From assembly GCF_004193175.1 (NCBI RefSeq), contig NZ_SAUH01000001.1, forward strand, positions 2,583,501 through 2,647,500: a stretch of DNA of 64,000 nucleotides. Reading direction: 5' to 3'. Below the pieces are notes generated by a model. It was not told the DNA's origin and made no database searches. It saw nothing but the letters and a program-made list of their open reading frames with translations. The DNA comes from Streptomyces sp. RFCAC02 (lineage in GTDB: Bacteria > Actinomycetota > Actinomycetes > Streptomycetales > Streptomycetaceae). Position numbers and translations under genes: made by a program. How positions within the stretch are numbered: the stretch's first letter is position 1; every line of letters starts with the position of its first letter. This document shows positions 21,080-26,143 of this stretch, piece after piece.

Positions 21080-21284
21080 ACGGTTCCTCCGGGGATCGCT
21101 GTCACGACATCCTGGAGAACCGGCCAAAAGCCGCGAAAGACTCGTTTTCGCCCCGTTTTCCGCACCAGTGGCCCAATCGGGCCGCCATGGCCTGAATCCG
21201 CGGCGGCTGCGGAACCATCGCGCCGCGCCGTGCGTATCTCCTGTCACAGAGCGTTGCCGGGCGATCGGGGAGAGGGAGGCCGCC

Positions 21285-21461
21285 ATGGCGGCGGGTGTGT
21301 CGGGCAAGGGGCGGGGAGACTTGAACGCGGCGTCCCAGGCGGCGGGAGTGGCCGGCACGGTCGCCTCGCTCGCCGGACTCGTGGTGTCGGTCATCGCCCT
21401 GTACCGGGGCGGGGGAAGCGGCGGCGCCGTCCGCGTGGGGAGCGGCGCGACCCTCCCCGTG
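21285..21461 (+). pseudogene. Truncated duplicate of the small membrane-protein gene at 23232
   Basis: From 21189 the sequence repeats that at 23136 almost base for base: a shared leader, and the block coding NAASQAAGVAGTVASLAG. Two changes break it: the first membrane helix is deleted (it reads MAAGVSGKGRGDLNAASQ here), and after GSGATLPVG homology stops at 21461 where a terminator hairpin begins. The C-terminal VGSSTGSAIG motif is thus absent. A reading frame continues to 21794 through unrelated DNA. Not expected to be functional. Confidence 0.8.
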
Positions 21462-21681
21462 GGCGTCGAACCCGAGCACCTAGTGCCGCGTCAGGCAAGG
21501 TTCGCCCCGTCGCGTCGCCCGGCACGGCACCTCGCTGCGTTGCCGAATCGCGCGAATACGACGGGTATGAGCTGCGATCCGGCGCCTTGCGATGCACCGC
21601 ACCGGACGCCGCTCCTTGACGGGCAAACCTTGCCTGACGCGGCACTAGCCCGGGCCGGGCCGGATGCTCGGGTTCGACGCC
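21462..21681. terminator. Terminator hairpin split by a MITE
   Basis: GGCGTCGAACCCGAGCA (21462-21478) pairs perfectly with 21665-21681 (17 bp). Removing the inserted element leaves a loop of about 21 nt, so this was a normal bidirectional terminator at the end of the membrane-protein gene (stop at 21688). Confidence 0.7.
21484..21644. mobile_element. 161-bp MITE with 19-bp terminal inverted repeats and CTAG duplications
   Basis: TGCCGCGTCAGGCAAGGTT at 21484-21502 is repeated perfectly inverted at 21626-21644. CTAG flanks both ends (21480-21483 and 21645-21648), a 4-bp target duplication of the YTAR type seen with IS5-family elements. No transposase gene fits inside, so it would need one in trans. 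Assignment to IS5 is inferred from the duplication only. Confidence 0.8.
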
Positions 21682-21687
21682 TCTCAG

Positions 21688-22242
21688 TCAGGCCGGGACC
21701 GGCGCGGGCTGGACCCGCTTCGCGTCCCGGGCCAGCCATACGCAGGCAGCCGCGAGCAGTACGCCGTGCGCGATCCGCAGTGCGGGCGGACTGAAGAACT
21801 GCGGCAGGAACAGCCCGAACCCGACCGCGAACAGGACCGCCGGCACCGTGCGCGTCCGGGCCGCGACGAGTATCGCGCCCGCCGCCATGGTCAGCAGCCC
21901 GAGCCCGAACATCGTCATCGCGAACGGGTTGTAGCGCACGTCCTCGGCCAGGTCGAGGACGTGCGGCTGGTTGGCGATCGCATGCAGGCCGAAGCTCTCG
22001 GCGCCGTAGTACGGCAGCGTCAGGCCGGCGCCGATCCAGAACACGATCGCCGCCACGCGGTTGATCGGCAGCAGTGCGATCGCGACCAGGATGAACCCGA
22101 TCATCGCACACAGGTGCGAGACGATCCACGCGGTGGAGCCCATCGCGGCGGCGGCGCCCGAGGTGGTGGACTCGTCCTCCCACGGGCGGAGAGCGGGGTA
22201 GAGCAGGAACAGTACGCCTGCGACAGACAGCGGGATCCTCAT
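21688..22242 (-). CDS. Small polytopic membrane protein
   Basis: 184 aa with five to six hydrophobic helices: MRIPLSVAGVLFLLYPAL, TAWIVSHLCAMIGFILVAIALL, VAAIVFWIGAGLTLPYYGAE, MTMFGLGLLTMAAGAILVA and TVPAVLFAVGFGLFLPQFF. A short basic tail ends it (ARDAKRVQPAPVPA). No catalytic family recognised; the layout resembles DUF998/DUF4386-type integral proteins. Start overlaps the 51-aa gene stop by 4 nt. Third gene of the TetR cassette and so probably the regulated product. Confidence 0.78.
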   Translation of the reverse strand: MRIPLSVAGVLFLLYPALRPWEDESTTSGAAAAMGSTAWIVSHLCAMIGFILVAIALLPINRVAAIVFWIGAGLTLPYYGAESFGLHAIANQPHVLDLAEDVRYNPFAMTMFGLGLLTMAAGAILVAARTRTVPAVLFAVGFGLFLPQFFSPPALRIAHGVLLAAACVWLARDAKRVQPAPVPA

Positions 22243-23231: not shown

Positions 23232-23648
23232 GTGTCGAACAAGGGGCGGGCGGTGGCGTGGACCGTCGCGGTGGTCAGTGCGCTGGCGACGGCGGGGCTC
23301 GTCCTGCTGCTGGTGCGGGCGGACCTGAACGCGGCGTCCCAGGCGGCGGGAGTGGCCGGCACGGTCGCCTCGCTCGCCGGACTCGTGGTGTCGGTCATCG
23401 CCCTGTACCGGGGCGGGGGAAGCGGCGGCGCCGTCCGCGTGGGGAGCGGCGGGACCCTCCTCGTGGGCAGCAGCACGGGCAGCGCGATAGGCAAGGGCGC
23501 CTCGGTCTCCGGCCCGGCCGGCACGGCCCCGGCTCCCGGCACGCCGGTCGCACCGCCGTCCGGTGACGTCGATGTCGCCCCCGGCGGGACGGCGGCTTTC
23601 GGCCATGTCACGGACAGCGCGATCGGGGAGGACAGCAAGCGTTCATGA
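23232..23648 (+). CDS. Small two-helix membrane protein with C-terminal SAIG motifs; putative partner of the STAND NTPase
   Basis: 138 aa, GTG start. Helices at about 8-28 (AWTVAVVSALATAGLVLLLV) and 39-59 (AGVAGTVASLAGLVVSVIAL), then a Gly/Ser/Pro-rich tail. The tail contains VGSSTGSAIGKGASV (78-92) and FGHVTDSAIGEDS (123-135); the coupled STAND protein has VGDTTDSAIGPHASV near its N-terminus. A shared short motif between a membrane protein and an adjacent NLR-like protein resembles bacterial amyloid signalling motifs, with the membrane part as a possible effector. That is inference. Overlaps the STAND gene by 4 nt. A broken copy lies at 21285. Confidence 0.75.
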   Translation: MSNKGRAVAWTVAVVSALATAGLVLLLVRADLNAASQAAGVAGTVASLAGLVVSVIALYRGGGSGGAVRVGSGGTLLVGSSTGSAIGKGASVSGPAGTAPAPGTPVAPPSGDVDVAPGGTAAFGHVTDSAIGEDSKRS

Positions 23649-26143
23649 CACCGCCGCTGTGGCGTCGCGGTCGCCGCGCCGAAGCCCCCGCGCCCTCTCC
23701 CGAGGCCGGTCTCACGGTGGCGAAGAAGGCCGTCGCGGTGGTCGGGGACACGACGGATTCCGCCATCGGCCCCCACGCGAGCGTCACCAAGGTCGTGCAC
23801 CAGTACGTCCTGCCGCCGCGCGCCGAGGTGACGTGGCCGGTCCGGCTCGGTTCCGTGCCGCAGGAGGCCGCCGCGTTCCAGCACCGGGCCGAGGTCCAGC
23901 AGCGGATCGACCGGGCGCGGGAGCGCAGCGGCACCGTCGTCCTGACGCAGGTGCTGCGCGGCGGGGGCGGCGTCGGCAAGTCGCAGCTCGCCGCCCACTA
24001 CGCCCGCCTCGCCGACCGCGAGGGGACCGAGCTGATCGTGTGGGTGGACGCGGCCGAGACCGAACAGGTCGTCGCCGCGTATGCCCGTGCCGCCCATCAC
24101 CTGGCCGTTCCGGGGGCACTGGGCGAGGACGCCGAGGCCGACGCCCACGCCTTCCGTGAGTGGCTGGCCGCGACGGACCGGTCGTGGCTGATCGTGCTGG
24201 ACGACCTCAGCGACCCCGCCGCCGTCGCCCCGTGGTGGCCGCCCACCGCGCCCGGGAGGCTGGGCCGCGTCCTGGCGACGACCCGCCGCCGGGACGCCGC
24301 GCTGTCCGGCGGGGGCCGGGCGGTCGTCGACATCGACGTCTACTCGACCGCCGAGGCCCTCGCCTATCTCCGCAGGCGACTCGCGGAGGAGGACGCGGAG
24401 CACCTGCTGGACGAGGACGCGGGCGTCCTGGTGGAGGACCTGGGACGGCTGCCGCTGGCCCTCGCGCACGCGGCGGCCTACCTGGTCAACGAGGCCGTCA
24501 CCTGCGGTGATTACCGGCACAGGCTGTCGGACAGCGGCACCCGGCTCGACGCCCTGATGCCCACCGCCGGGGACGGCTACCCGCGCGAGGTCGGCGCGGC
24601 GCTGCTGCTGTCACTGGAGGCGGCCGCCGCCGCCGATTCGGCCGGACTCGCCCTCCCGACGCTGGTCCTGACCGCTCTCCTCGACCCGGCGGGACACCCG
24701 GAGGCACTCTGGCGGACCGAAGCCGTACTTCTCTCCCTGACGGACTTCCGTGCGGCGTTGGGCGAGGAGCGCGGGGTGACAGCGGACGAGGCACGGGCGA
24801 CACTACGGCTCCTGCACACCTACAGCCTCATCACGCACGAGCCCCGGGCCGGTGACCGGGCCGTACGCATCCACGCCATGACGGCCCGCGCGGTGCGCGA
24901 CACGCTGTCCGATTCGGTGCTCAACGCGGCGGCCCAGGACGCCGCGAATGCCCTCCTGGAGCTGTGGCCGGAAGAGCATGAGCCCGACTGGGCCCTCGTC
25001 GATGTGCTGCGAGCCAACGCCGGCGCGCTCGCGTTCCATGCCGGCGACGCCCTGTGGGACACCGGCGCGGAGGGCGGCCACGCTGTTCTGTTCCTGGTGG
25101 GCCGGAGCCTGAGGGAAGTCGGACAGTTCACCGCCGCGATCGATCACTGGTCACGCGCCATCGACACGGCGAACCGGATCCTGGGTGCGGAACATCCTGA
25201 CGTCGGCGTCCTGCGCACCAACCTCGCCGTCGCCTACAGCCAGGCCGGCCGCACCGACGAGGCCATCCAGTTGGGGGTACATATCCTGGCCGCCCGCGAA
25301 CGCACCCTCCCACCCGACCACCCCGACACCCTCCTCGCCCGCGCCAACCTCGCCGCCACCTACAGCCAGGCAGGCCGCGCCGACCAAGCCGCGCGGATGG
25401 AGGAACAGGTCCTCGCCGCCCGCGAACGCACCCTCCCACCCGACCACCCCGACACCCTCCTCGCCCGCGCCAACCTCGCCGTCTCCTACAACGCAATGGG
25501 CCGCACCGACGAGGCCATCCGGCTGGAGGAACAGGTCCTGGCCGTCCGCGAACGCACCCTCCCGCCCGACCACCCCGACACCCTCCATGCACGCGCCAAC
25601 CTCGCCGCCTTTTACAACGAAATGGGCGGCACCGACGAGGCCATCCGCATCGGGGAACACGTCCTGGCCGTCCGCGAACGCACCCTCCCGCCCGACCACC
25701 CAGACACCCTCCTCACGTGCATCAACCTGGCGTTCTCCTACAACCGGGCGGGCCGCGCCGATGAGGCCGTCCGCATCGGGGAACACGTTCTGGCCGTCCG
25801 CGAACGCACCCTGCCGCCCGACCACCCCGACATCCTCATCGCACGCGCCAACCTCGCCGCCTCCTACGCCGAGACGGGCCGCACCGACCAAGCCATCCCG
25901 ATGGAGGAACAGGTCCTCGCCGCCCGCGAACGCACCCTCCCACCCGGCCACCCCGACACCCTCATCGCACGCGCCAACCTCGCCGCCTCCTACTGGCAGG
26001 TGAATCGCACCGAGGAGGCCCTTGTCCTTCTCGCAGAGGCAGTGGCCGACTCGGAGCGTGTGCTCGGGTCGGAGCACCCCGATACGGTCGGCAGGCGGGA
26101 GCTGTTGGCTCAGTGGCGGGCGGAGACCGGCGGGGGCGAGTGA
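23645..26143 (+). CDS. STAND (NB-ARC) NTPase with TPR repeats
   Basis: 832 aa. N-terminal 60 residues carry VGDTTDSAIGPHASV (33-47). NTPase: Walker A RGGGGVGKS (105-113), Walker B WLIVLDDLSD (181-190), sensor-like LATTRRRD, LGRLPLALAHAAAYL (the GxP motif) and RIHAMTARAVRD (MHD-like). From about residue 470, six to seven kinesin-light-chain-type TPRs of 42 aa with the consensus AARERTLPPDHPDTLLARANL. This is the FxsT-like or NLR-like layout: a ligand bound by TPRs triggers oligomerisation. Coupled by ATGA overlap to the upstream membrane protein. Could act in defence, stress or development. Confidence 0.9.
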   Translation: MTPPLWRRGRRAEAPAPSPEAGLTVAKKAVAVVGDTTDSAIGPHASVTKVVHQYVLPPRAEVTWPVRLGSVPQEAAAFQHRAEVQQRIDRARERSGTVVLTQVLRGGGGVGKSQLAAHYARLADREGTELIVWVDAAETEQVVAAYARAAHHLAVPGALGEDAEADAHAFREWLAATDRSWLIVLDDLSDPAAVAPWWPPTAPGRLGRVLATTRRRDAALSGGGRAVVDIDVYSTAEALAYLRRRLAEEDAEHLLDEDAGVLVEDLGRLPLALAHAAAYLVNEAVTCGDYRHRLSDSGTRLDALMPTAGDGYPREVGAALLLSLEAAAAADSAGLALPTLVLTALLDPAGHPEALWRTEAVLLSLTDFRAALGEERGVTADEARATLRLLHTYSLITHEPRAGDRAVRIHAMTARAVRDTLSDSVLNAAAQDAANALLELWPEEHEPDWALVDVLRANAGALAFHAGDALWDTGAEGGHAVLFLVGRSLREVGQFTAAIDHWSRAIDTANRILGAEHPDVGVLRTNLAVAYSQAGRTDEAIQLGVHILAARERTLPPDHPDTLLARANLAATYSQAGRADQAARMEEQVLAARERTLPPDHPDTLLARANLAVSYNAMGRTDEAIRLEEQVLAVRERTLPPDHPDTLHARANLAAFYNEMGGTDEAIRIGEHVLAVRERTLPPDHPDTLLTCINLAFSYNRAGRADEAVRIGEHVLAVRERTLPPDHPDILIARANLAASYAETGRTDQAIPMEEQVLAARERTLPPGHPDTLIARANLAASYWQVNRTEEALVLLAEAVADSERVLGSEHPDTVGRRELLAQWRAETGGGE
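25201..25990 (+). repeat. 126-bp tandem repeats coding TPR units
   Basis: The segment cgcgaacgcaccctccc and its surroundings recur every 126 bp, with the CGCCCGCGAACG phase at 25291, 25417, 25543, 25669, 25795 and 25921. Identity is high at the DNA level, including third positions. This suggests recent duplication or gene conversion, and repeat number may vary between strains. Confidence 0.9.

What the first reader, a model, noticed from the sequence alone, without database searches (positions are those of the whole stretch)
23232..26143. Candidate NLR-like system: membrane protein and STAND NTPase share a short signalling motif
The two genes overlap by 4 nt. The 138-aa membrane protein carries VGSSTGSAIGKGASV and FGHVTDSAIGEDS in its tail; the STAND protein has VGDTTDSAIGPHASV at residues 33-47, before its NTPase. 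A motif repeated in both proteins is the known layout of bacterial amyloid signalling motifs (BASS), where an NLR nucleates polymerisation of a neighbouring effector. Here the effector would be a two-helix membrane protein, which could permeabilise the membrane. I do not recognise this motif as a described class.
Basis: partly seen in the sequence, partly recalled or inferred. Interest (0 to 1): 0.85.

Follow-up and report, generated by a model that had tools for sequence, protein, structure and literature searches.

The report
Motif-linked bacterial sensor and membrane effector
Two overlapping genes in a Streptomyces-family bacterium encode an immune-type sensor and a small membrane protein that share a short sequence tag; related gene pairs carry different but matching tags, which suggests that the sensor switches on the membrane protein by tag-to-tag assembly, as in known amyloid-signalling immune pairs but with a different membrane effector.

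Summary
The shared motif beats 2000 of 2000 shuffles. A motif profile built without this window ranks r2 and r0 as its two best places in the host genome. The effector is a recurrent actinobacterial family. In 65 effector/downstream-ORF pairs the tags co-vary: mean match 55.2 against 35.1 for permuted partners, 0 of 20,000 permutations, and also within tag types A and B. Partners range over NB-ARC, NACHT, AAA_16 and DUF4062 proteins. In three ORFs the membrane domain runs directly into an NTPase without a visible tag; a fourth keeps two tags. The tail is predicted cytosolic. AlphaFold2 gives two equally spaced beta segments for this tag type, but disorder for another type. Layout matches bacterial amyloid-signalling (BASS) pairs and HET-S/NWD2, but the effector is not the Bell domain and the motif is not BASS3. 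Amyloid formation, membrane damage and defence are inferred. New variant of a known kind.

The parts
23232..23648 (+). effector gene: 138-aa two-helix membrane protein with two tail motif copies
   Evidence: family members
23259..23315 (+). transmembrane helix 1 (residues 10-28)
   Evidence: hydropathy 2.30; AlphaFold2 helix 3-29
23349..23405 (+). transmembrane helix 2 (residues 40-58), rich in small residues
   Evidence: hydropathy 2.14; AlphaFold2 helix 36-60; alignments A1, A4
23439..23510 (+). motif copy r1 (residues 70-93)
   Evidence: predicted strands between residues 68 and 92
23574..23645 (+). motif copy r2 (residues 115-138, C-terminus)
   Evidence: found by the leave-out profile at E 3.1e-6 in the own genome
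23645..23648 (+). 4-nt overlap ATGA of the two genes (likely translational coupling)
   Evidence: a start codon at the same -4 offset in 47 of 65 related pairs
23645..26143 (+). sensor gene: 832-aa STAND NTPase with TPR array
23717..23788 (+). motif copy r0 (residues 25-48) at the sensor N-terminus
   Evidence: leave-out profile E 0.0017
23894..24493 (+). NTPase (NB-ARC-like, residues 84-283); P-loop GGGGVGKS at 23960-23983
   Evidence: Pfam NB-ARC 20.9 bits, below its cut-off 23.5; NCBIfam NF040586 360.9 bits over residues 71-829
25088..26143 (+). TPR array, 42-residue units (126-nt period), copies 65-85% identical in DNA to the reference stretch
21189..21464 (+). partial upstream copy of the effector region (two blocks, 96% identical), most TM1 codons missing and tail cut off; a decayed duplicate, not an active part
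   Evidence: families D2, D3

Best explanation
A two-gene NLR-type signalling pair. The cytosolic STAND/TPR sensor, once triggered through its TPR array, oligomerises and brings several r0 motifs together. The ordered r0 cluster templates the matching r1 and r2 motifs in the cytosolic tail of the two-helix membrane protein, which then assembles; clustering of the helical hairpins is expected to breach the inner membrane and kill or arrest the cell, probably in response to phage or other invaders. Shown: gene layout, motif triplication, family-wide motif co-variation, direct fusions of the two halves; tail on the cytosolic side by the charge rule. Inferred: cross-beta (amyloid) nature, templating direction, membrane damage, trigger.
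For: Tag co-variation over 65 pairs (0 of 20,000 permutations; 51 less redundant pairs likewise); it holds inside rough tag types too: A, 17 pairs, 60.7 against 49.1, 0 of 20,000; B, 22 pairs, 56.2 against 48.2, 0 of 20,000; C/D, 7 pairs, 309 of 20,000. Leave-out profile: the matches at E up to 0.1 in the own genome (150 of 352 first-look candidates scored) are r2, r0 and the r0 of a second, broken system. The profile that includes the window copies gave 8 matches in 61 genomes, all in pair genes, 5 of them in two genomes not used for the profile. A tagged partner is seen for 63 of 78 effectors (54 by an automatic rule; 9 more by reading). Membrane domain fused to an NTPase in three ORFs without a visible tag and in one with two tags. 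The sensor N-terminus reads as a swappable module among 119 relatives. 4-nt offset in 47 of 65 pairs. Charge rule over 78 effectors: mean net charge +1.73 (N-terminus), -1.28 (loop), +1.00 (after helix 2). AlphaFold2: strands at 68-70, 75-78, 81-82, 85-86, 91-92 recur 45 residues later.
Against: No fibril, seeding, toxicity or phage data. AlphaFold2 of another tag type (22 sequences) left the tail disordered, pLDDT below 50. Foldseek found no similar structure. 15 of 78 effectors show no partner in the fetched stretch. The cognate sensor is the single best match for only 8 of 65 effectors and within the best five for 35, because tag types are shared; exclusive pairing is not shown. The leave-out profile did not recover r1. 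No PADLOC match in 10 proteins between 12143 and 41326 or in 49 effector family members.
Confidence: 0.62

Rival explanations
1. The motif is a homotypic docking element of ordinary, non-amyloid kind (a small beta-solenoid or strand-exchange contact); the membrane protein is a constitutive membrane anchor for the sensor and kills nothing.
For: AlphaFold2 gives r1 and r2 beta structure within one chain at fair confidence, which could be a stable folded dock; direct fusions of the membrane domain to NTPases fit a tether as well as a pore.
Against: The motif has two copies in the effector and one in the sensor, lies in Gly/Ala/Pro-rich tails, and diversifies in step between partners, as known amyloid pairs do; a simple anchor gives no obvious reason for many tag types.
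Confidence: 0.22
2. The sensor is an FxSxx-COOH (RiPP maturation) system TPR protein and the small membrane protein is part of that pathway, not immunity.
For: NCBIfam NF040586 passes its cut-off, and some relatives carry this name in NCBI records.
Against: None of the 10 neighbouring proteins scanned matches an Fxs partner model (short ORFs not scanned). The effector family also pairs with NACHT-, nSTAND5- and DUF4062-type proteins, so the pairing does not follow one TPR family.
Confidence: 0.05
3. The shared motif is a compositional coincidence of Gly/Ala/Ser/Val-rich tails in a high-GC genome.
For: Tails and N-termini are low in complexity; reversed tails score up to 46 against P-loop ORFs, as high as this window's own masked match of 45.
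Against: 0 of 2000 shuffles; 0 of 20,000 partner permutations with linkers masked; the leave-out profile search of the own genome; no match outside such pairs in 61 genomes.
Confidence: 0.02

Closest known systems
Bacterial amyloid signalling (BASS) NLR/Bell pairs (Dyrka et al. 2020, not held; seen through passages of PMC7889193, PMC8086366 with its section 13 in full, PMC9815663, PMC12261475, PMC7885112)
   Same: Adjacent or overlapping effector and NLR genes in filamentous actinobacteria; shared short motif at effector C-terminus and NLR N-terminus; several motif families.
   Different: Effector is a two-helix membrane hairpin of about 60 residues without profile similarity to the Bell-like proteins collected here; motif is not BASS3; membership of the other nine BASS classes could not be tested.
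HET-S / NWD2 (Podospora) signalling
   Same: Two pseudo-repeats in the effector tail; predicted beta segments of equal spacing joined by a linker. The single repeat in NWD2 is recalled; the two-repeat layout is in passages of PMC7889193.
   Different: No sequence relation was tested or seen; effector domain is not HeLo by layout; no fibril structure known.
RHIM / BASS3 / fungal PP motifs
   Same: Short glycine-centred core with hydrophobic flanks; type-B tags of this family show a weak profile match to BASS3 (25% probability, 11 columns).
   Different: The window's type-A tag has no BASS3 profile match (0.6%) and lacks the VQVG core; no Pfam RHIM match in either protein at E up to 1.
CBASS-type 2TM and SLATT two-helix effectors
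   Same: Small two-helix membrane proteins proposed as effectors of defence; SLATT as a predicted 2TM pore-former is from passages of PMC7159879.
   Different: No family match: PADLOC 2TM effector 9.3 bits, E 0.2; 0 of 49 family members at E 0.01. Coupled by a peptide tag, not by a nucleotide signal.

Membership tests
BASS NLR/Bell amyloid signalosome | effector and NLR genes adjacent or overlapping | tested here: met
   4-nt overlap; same offset in 47 of 65 related pairs
BASS NLR/Bell amyloid signalosome | same short motif at effector C-terminus and NLR N-terminus | tested here: met
BASS NLR/Bell amyloid signalosome | effector carries the Bell domain | tested here: not met
   Profile of 13 BASS3-bearing effector proteins picked from the 66 loci (Bell by inference: S. 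canus L176 has 124 aa and Q112/Q119; the published S. atratus protein has its motif at 70-124 with Q113/Q120, PMC9815663) against the effector family: hhalign probability 0.1%; the effector HMM hits no ORF of the 66 loci at E 0.01
BASS NLR/Bell amyloid signalosome | motif matches one of the BASS1-10 profiles | tested here: inconclusive
   BASS3 stand-in profile: no match. BASS1, 2 and 4-10 models and the 2020 paper are not held
BASS NLR/Bell amyloid signalosome | motif peptides form fibrils and the NLR-side motif seeds the effector side | not testable with these tools
   needs peptides
HET-S/NWD2-like two-repeat prion domain | two pseudo-repeats in effector, one in NLR | tested here: met
   r1, r2, r0
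HET-S/NWD2-like two-repeat prion domain | two-rung beta-solenoid fold | tested here: inconclusive
   predicted strands repeat with a 45-residue offset; not predicted for another tag type; no Foldseek match; no coordinates were available to measure stacking
RHIM (PF12721) | Pfam RHIM match | tested here: not met
   no RHIM match at E up to 1 in either protein
FxSxx-COOH system TPR protein (NF040586) | model score above cut-off | tested here: met
   360.9 against 300
FxSxx-COOH system TPR protein (NF040586) | Fxs precursor and maturation genes nearby | tested here: inconclusive
   none among 10 neighbouring proteins; short ORFs not scanned
PADLOC-described 2TM defence effectors | family model match | tested here: not met
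   9.3 bits, E 0.2; 0 of 49 relatives at E 0.01

The most novel reading that the evidence does not exclude
A large undescribed branch of bacterial amyloid signalling: a two-helix membrane killer with a HET-S-like two-repeat tail, driven by several new motif classes (outside BASS1-10) that act as barcodes. Each receptor fires effectors of its own tag, so one genome can run several insulated death circuits, and receptors swap barcodes independently of their sensor repeats.
Probability: 0.4. Interest if true: 0.8.

Novelty: new variant of a known kind. Interest (0 to 1): 0.66.

Why it matters
Published BASS work, in the passages that I could read, centres on Bell effectors, with CHAT and TIR as less frequent partners. 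Here the executioner would be a minimal two-helix membrane hairpin, about the simplest effector that could be attached to such a tag, and it recurs with at least five tag types (my reading) and several sensor types. That makes the specificity code testable: tag swaps between natural pairs should redirect signalling. A Bell-like BASS3 pair and the two-helix pair lie in the same bacterium, so insulation between circuits can be tested in one host. Named relatives in the protein search are called hypothetical or uncharacterised, one a secreted protein, and the members tested have no above-cut-off family in Pfam and none in PADLOC; NCBIfam was tried only for the window's protein.

Tried and rejected
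Tried without result: direct protein search with the single effector (one relative) and a genome-contig scan with it (none); plasmid and phage tblastn with it (none); Foldseek against PDB and viral models (none); PDB sequence search with the NTPase region (nothing relevant); literature search for the motif string VAAGGD (0 papers) and for two-helix effectors of bacterial NLRs (nothing relevant in the listings). PMC8195603 and PMC7159879 were seen only in found passages; none of these describes this pair.

Rejected: coincidence of composition; BASS3/RHIM membership of the window's tag; Bell membership; FxSxx RiPP system as the explanation of the pair. My first automatic partner count was discarded because its P-loop pattern excluded proline and its threshold was passed by 14 of 48 reversed controls; one search replaces it. 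A first match matrix without masking was replaced by the masked one.

Selection to know about: the 80 fetched stretches were chosen from the strongest hits plus four suspected fusions (L125-L128), so partner frequency describes strong relatives. Of 79 effector ORFs above 40 bits one fusion (L167) was set aside, leaving 78. Of 65 downstream ORFs, 58 went to Pfam; 7 judged unrelated (L093, L113, L120, L138, L144, L153, L160) were dropped there but kept in the permutation test; for L104 and L144 the choice of ORF or region was poor, and L104's tagged sensor appears only. Tag types come from rough text patterns and misplace a few pairs. Searches with the effector or Bell profiles scored only 10-28 first-look candidates per genome when many genomes were searched, so prevalence is a lower bound.
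Full report
Observation. The effector starts at a GTG at 23232, has 138 residues and overlaps the STAND gene by four bases (ATGA). The alignable stretch is about 24 residues rather than 15: r1 (residues 70-93) and r2 (115-138) in the effector, r0 (25-48) in the sensor, with 10 to 11 identities of 24 between any two. Identical residues often use different codons (5 of 11, 7 of 11 and 7 of 10), so the likeness is kept at protein level. Against 2000 shuffles of the sensor N-terminus none reaches the observed score.

What the proteins are. The effector has no match at E up to 1 in Pfam or NCBIfam and only a non-significant PADLOC line, a 2TM effector at 9.3 bits. It has two hydrophobic helices at 10-28 and 40-58. 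Over 78 family members the N-terminus is net positive in 76, the inter-helix loop net negative in 59, and the 15 residues after helix 2 net positive in 51 and net negative in 11, which by the positive-inside rule puts both ends, and so the tail motifs, in the cytosol. The sensor has a P-loop NTPase that matches NB-ARC weakly (20.9 bits, cut-off 23.5), a TPR array, and passes NCBIfam's FxSxx-COOH TPR model (360.9, cut-off 300). The TPR array is built of 126-nt units, 65-85% identical in DNA to the reference stretch, which suggests recent turnover of the sensing part.

A family. With the single effector as query, 30 of 297 genomes of the same family had a match at E 0.001. With an alignment of 22 relatives, 85 of 246 same-genus genomes, 32 of 394 same-class genomes and 6 of 149 same-phylum genomes had one; each count includes the own genome. 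Only 10-27 candidates per genome were scored in most of these genomes, so the counts are lower bounds, and many weak matches cover only part of the query, some with stops inside. A protein search gave 48 relatives; those with names are called hypothetical or uncharacterised (one a secreted protein) from Streptomyces, Kitasatospora, Embleya and one Verrucosispora.

Co-variation, the main test. I fetched 80 stretches around the strongest hits. Of 78 effectors, 65 have a coding downstream ORF by a crude codon measure. I masked Pro/Ala-rich linkers, took the best ungapped match of each effector tail to the N-terminal 200 residues of each downstream ORF, and compared cognate pairs with permuted partners: mean 55.2 against 35.1 (sd 1.3), 0 of 20,000 permutations as high; for 51 effectors below 60% mutual identity 55.0 against 34.9, again 0 of 20,000. 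Seven downstream ORFs that look unrelated were kept in. The tags fall into visibly different types (my reading), for example VAVGGDVTGSAIG-x-x-S-x-V (type A, this window), SVAAGGDIG-x-x-x-TGD-x-N (type B), GQSVTGS-x-x-x-GPVDQ-x-x-x-x-x-GDVDI (type C), GGQSADGAAAGGSVR (type D) and ISGG-x-x-x-GPVIQG (one locus). Sorted roughly by text patterns, cognate pairs beat permutation inside types A (17 pairs, 60.7 against 49.1, 0 of 20,000) and B (22 pairs, 56.2 against 48.2, 0 of 20,000), and less clearly in C/D (7 pairs, 309 of 20,000); A tails against B sensors score 34.8 and the reverse 33.9, the level of chance pairing. Limits: the cognate sensor is the single best match for 8 of 65 effectors and within the best five for 35, since tag types are shared, and pairs inherited together are not independent. 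In two genomes with two systems of different type the cognate scores (64 and 47; 66 and 52) exceed the cross scores (35 and 24; 36 and 37); in a tandem pair with the same tag they do not, and two further groups gave mixed values.

Specificity. A type-A profile built without the three window copies, run over the own genome (6.1 Mb, six frames; 150 of 352 first-look candidates scored), returns three places at E up to 0.1: r2 (3.1e-6), r0 (0.0017) and the r0 of a second, decayed system (0.0089); r1 is not returned. The profile that includes the window copies, run over 61 genomes with all candidates scored, returns eight matches at E 0.001 in three genomes, all in effector or sensor of such pairs; five of these are in two genomes (loci L131, L134) that did not contribute to the profile.

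Partners. By an automatic rule (score above the 95% quantile of reversed tails, 40.8) 54 of 78 effectors have a tag-bearing P-loop ORF in the fetched stretch, about three being expected by chance; 13 have no P-loop ORF by pattern. The partner need not be the next gene: in L120 and L143 it lies further downstream, in L163 on the other strand. By reading, nine more have a partner that the rule missed (L098, L103, L105, L108, L119, L121, L124, L132, L171; L119 and L132 are the least certain), and 15 show none (L093, L094, L113, L114, L116, L136, L138, L140, L141, L144, L153, the minus-strand copy in L157, L158, L160, L161; in L160 an NTPase lies upstream with its N-terminus outside the stretch). 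I saw no adjacent downstream NTPase without a tag. Among 58 downstream proteins Pfam finds NB-ARC in 9+15, AAA_16 in 12+14, NACHT in 4+4, nSTAND5 in 6+3, TPR_12 in 18+19, HEAT_2 in 3+3 and DUF4062 in 2 (only the 25 commonest families are listed). In 47 of 65 pairs a start codon lies at the 4-nt overlap position (the start nearest the stop was chosen, which favours this).

Fusions. Of four suspected fusions, three ORFs of 1036 to 1216 codons (L126, L127, L128) have the membrane domain (21-26 bits, E 9e-5 to 4e-6) running directly into an NTPase with no tag that I can see; the fourth (L125, 36.6 bits) showed no NTPase in the part read. In L167 one ORF holds membrane domain, a tag, a linker, a second tag and the NTPase. 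This is what one expects if the tag does the job of a covalent link. The sensor side shows the same logic: among the 119 listed relatives of this sensor the region before the NTPase is a type-A tag, a RHIM-like tag (for example P0059, P0111, P0128), other tags, or what reads as a fused protease-like domain (P0154, P0159, P0169), on proteins 46-58% identical to this one in the aligned part (by reading; several records are truncated or were not parsed).

Structure. AlphaFold2 on the effector with 48 relatives (mean pLDDT 79.3, pTM 0.45) gives two helices and, in the tail, short strands at 68-70, 75-78, 81-82, 85-86, 91-92 and again at 113-115, 120-123, 126-127, 130-131, 136-137: the same pattern 45 residues on, at block pLDDT of 77-87 from residue 71. 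This is the arrangement expected of two rungs joined by a linker. I had no coordinates to check that they stack. A second effector of type C with 21 relatives gave helices only and a disordered tail, so the prediction does not generalise so far. Foldseek found no relative.

Comparison with the known. Passages of PMC7889193, PMC8086366 (section 13 in full), PMC9815663, PMC12261475 and PMC7885112 describe the BASS systems: ten motif families, adjacent Bell and NLR genes in filamentous bacteria, BASS3 related to RHIM, and other effectors such as CHAT and TIR. To compare, I used the BASS3 peptide printed in PMC8086366 to find 66 loci; from these I picked 13 BASS3-bearing proteins of about 120 residues that I take for Bell (S. 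canus L176, 124 aa, glutamines 7 apart as in the published S. atratus protein). Their profile has no similarity to our effector family (0.1%), and our effector profile matches no ORF in the 66 loci at E 0.01. The type-A tag has no profile match to BASS3; type B matches weakly (25%); types A and B match each other (94%). In 150 same-genus genomes 29 had a Bell-profile match; of the 17 strongest that I read, 16 look Bell-like and none carries a type-A or type-B tag (the profile came from BASS3 bearers, so other Bell proteins may be missed). The original 2020 paper is not held, so I cannot say that these motif types, or a two-helix effector, are absent from it; my searches of the held library showed no description.

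Mechanism and certainty. That the motif couples this sensor to this membrane protein I hold very likely (about 0.85). That the coupling is cross-beta templating, about 0.7. That the effector acts by breaching the membrane, about 0.6. That the purpose is defence against phage or other invaders rests on the general biology of NLRs and is untested; no known defence gene was found among ten proteins of the window scanned.

Noticed in passing
window 21189-21464 (+), with inverted repeat 21480-21507 / 21621-21648: Partial copy of the effector region (two blocks, 96% identical) about 2 kb upstream, lacking most TM1 codons and cut off before the tail, ending beside a 28-nt inverted repeat; an unassigned ORF (21688-22242, minus) and a TetR-type gene lie between the two copies.
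   Followed up: partly
own genome C1:1841743-1842276 (-), loci L065 and L241: A second system of the same kind with a different tag (GGIAAGGDVTGSSTHY), decayed: effector remnant and sensor N-part in broken frames.
   Followed up: partly
own genome C1:5496614-5496988 (-), locus L251: A Bell-like protein with a BASS3-type tail followed by an NTPase with a matching RHIM-like N-terminus, in the same genome as the window.
   Followed up: partly
L215:7617-7883 (Micromonospora sp. PLK6-60): A small protein with two apparent hydrophobic helices ending in a BASS3/RHIM-like motif (Pfam RHIM 17.2 bits, cut-off 20): possibly a second case of a minimal membrane effector on an amyloid-type tag.
   Followed up: no
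proteins P0056, P0057, P0063, P0068-P0070: Relatives of the sensor carry two different tags in tandem (type A followed by a TVGxDVFQAGRDLT-like tag), which could let one receptor address two effectors.
   Followed up: no
loci L138, L140, L158, L161: Effectors with type-B tags and no partner gene seen in the fetched stretch; possible trans partners.
   Followed up: no
window 25088-26143: TPR units with up to 85% DNA identity (126-nt period), a sign of recent repeat turnover in the sensing region; similar turnover in fungal NLR repeats is recalled.
   Followed up: no
window 23645-26143: The NCBIfam model NF040586 would name this sensor an FxSxx-COOH system protein although no Fxs partner was found among 10 neighbours; the model may be too broad.
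   Followed up: partly
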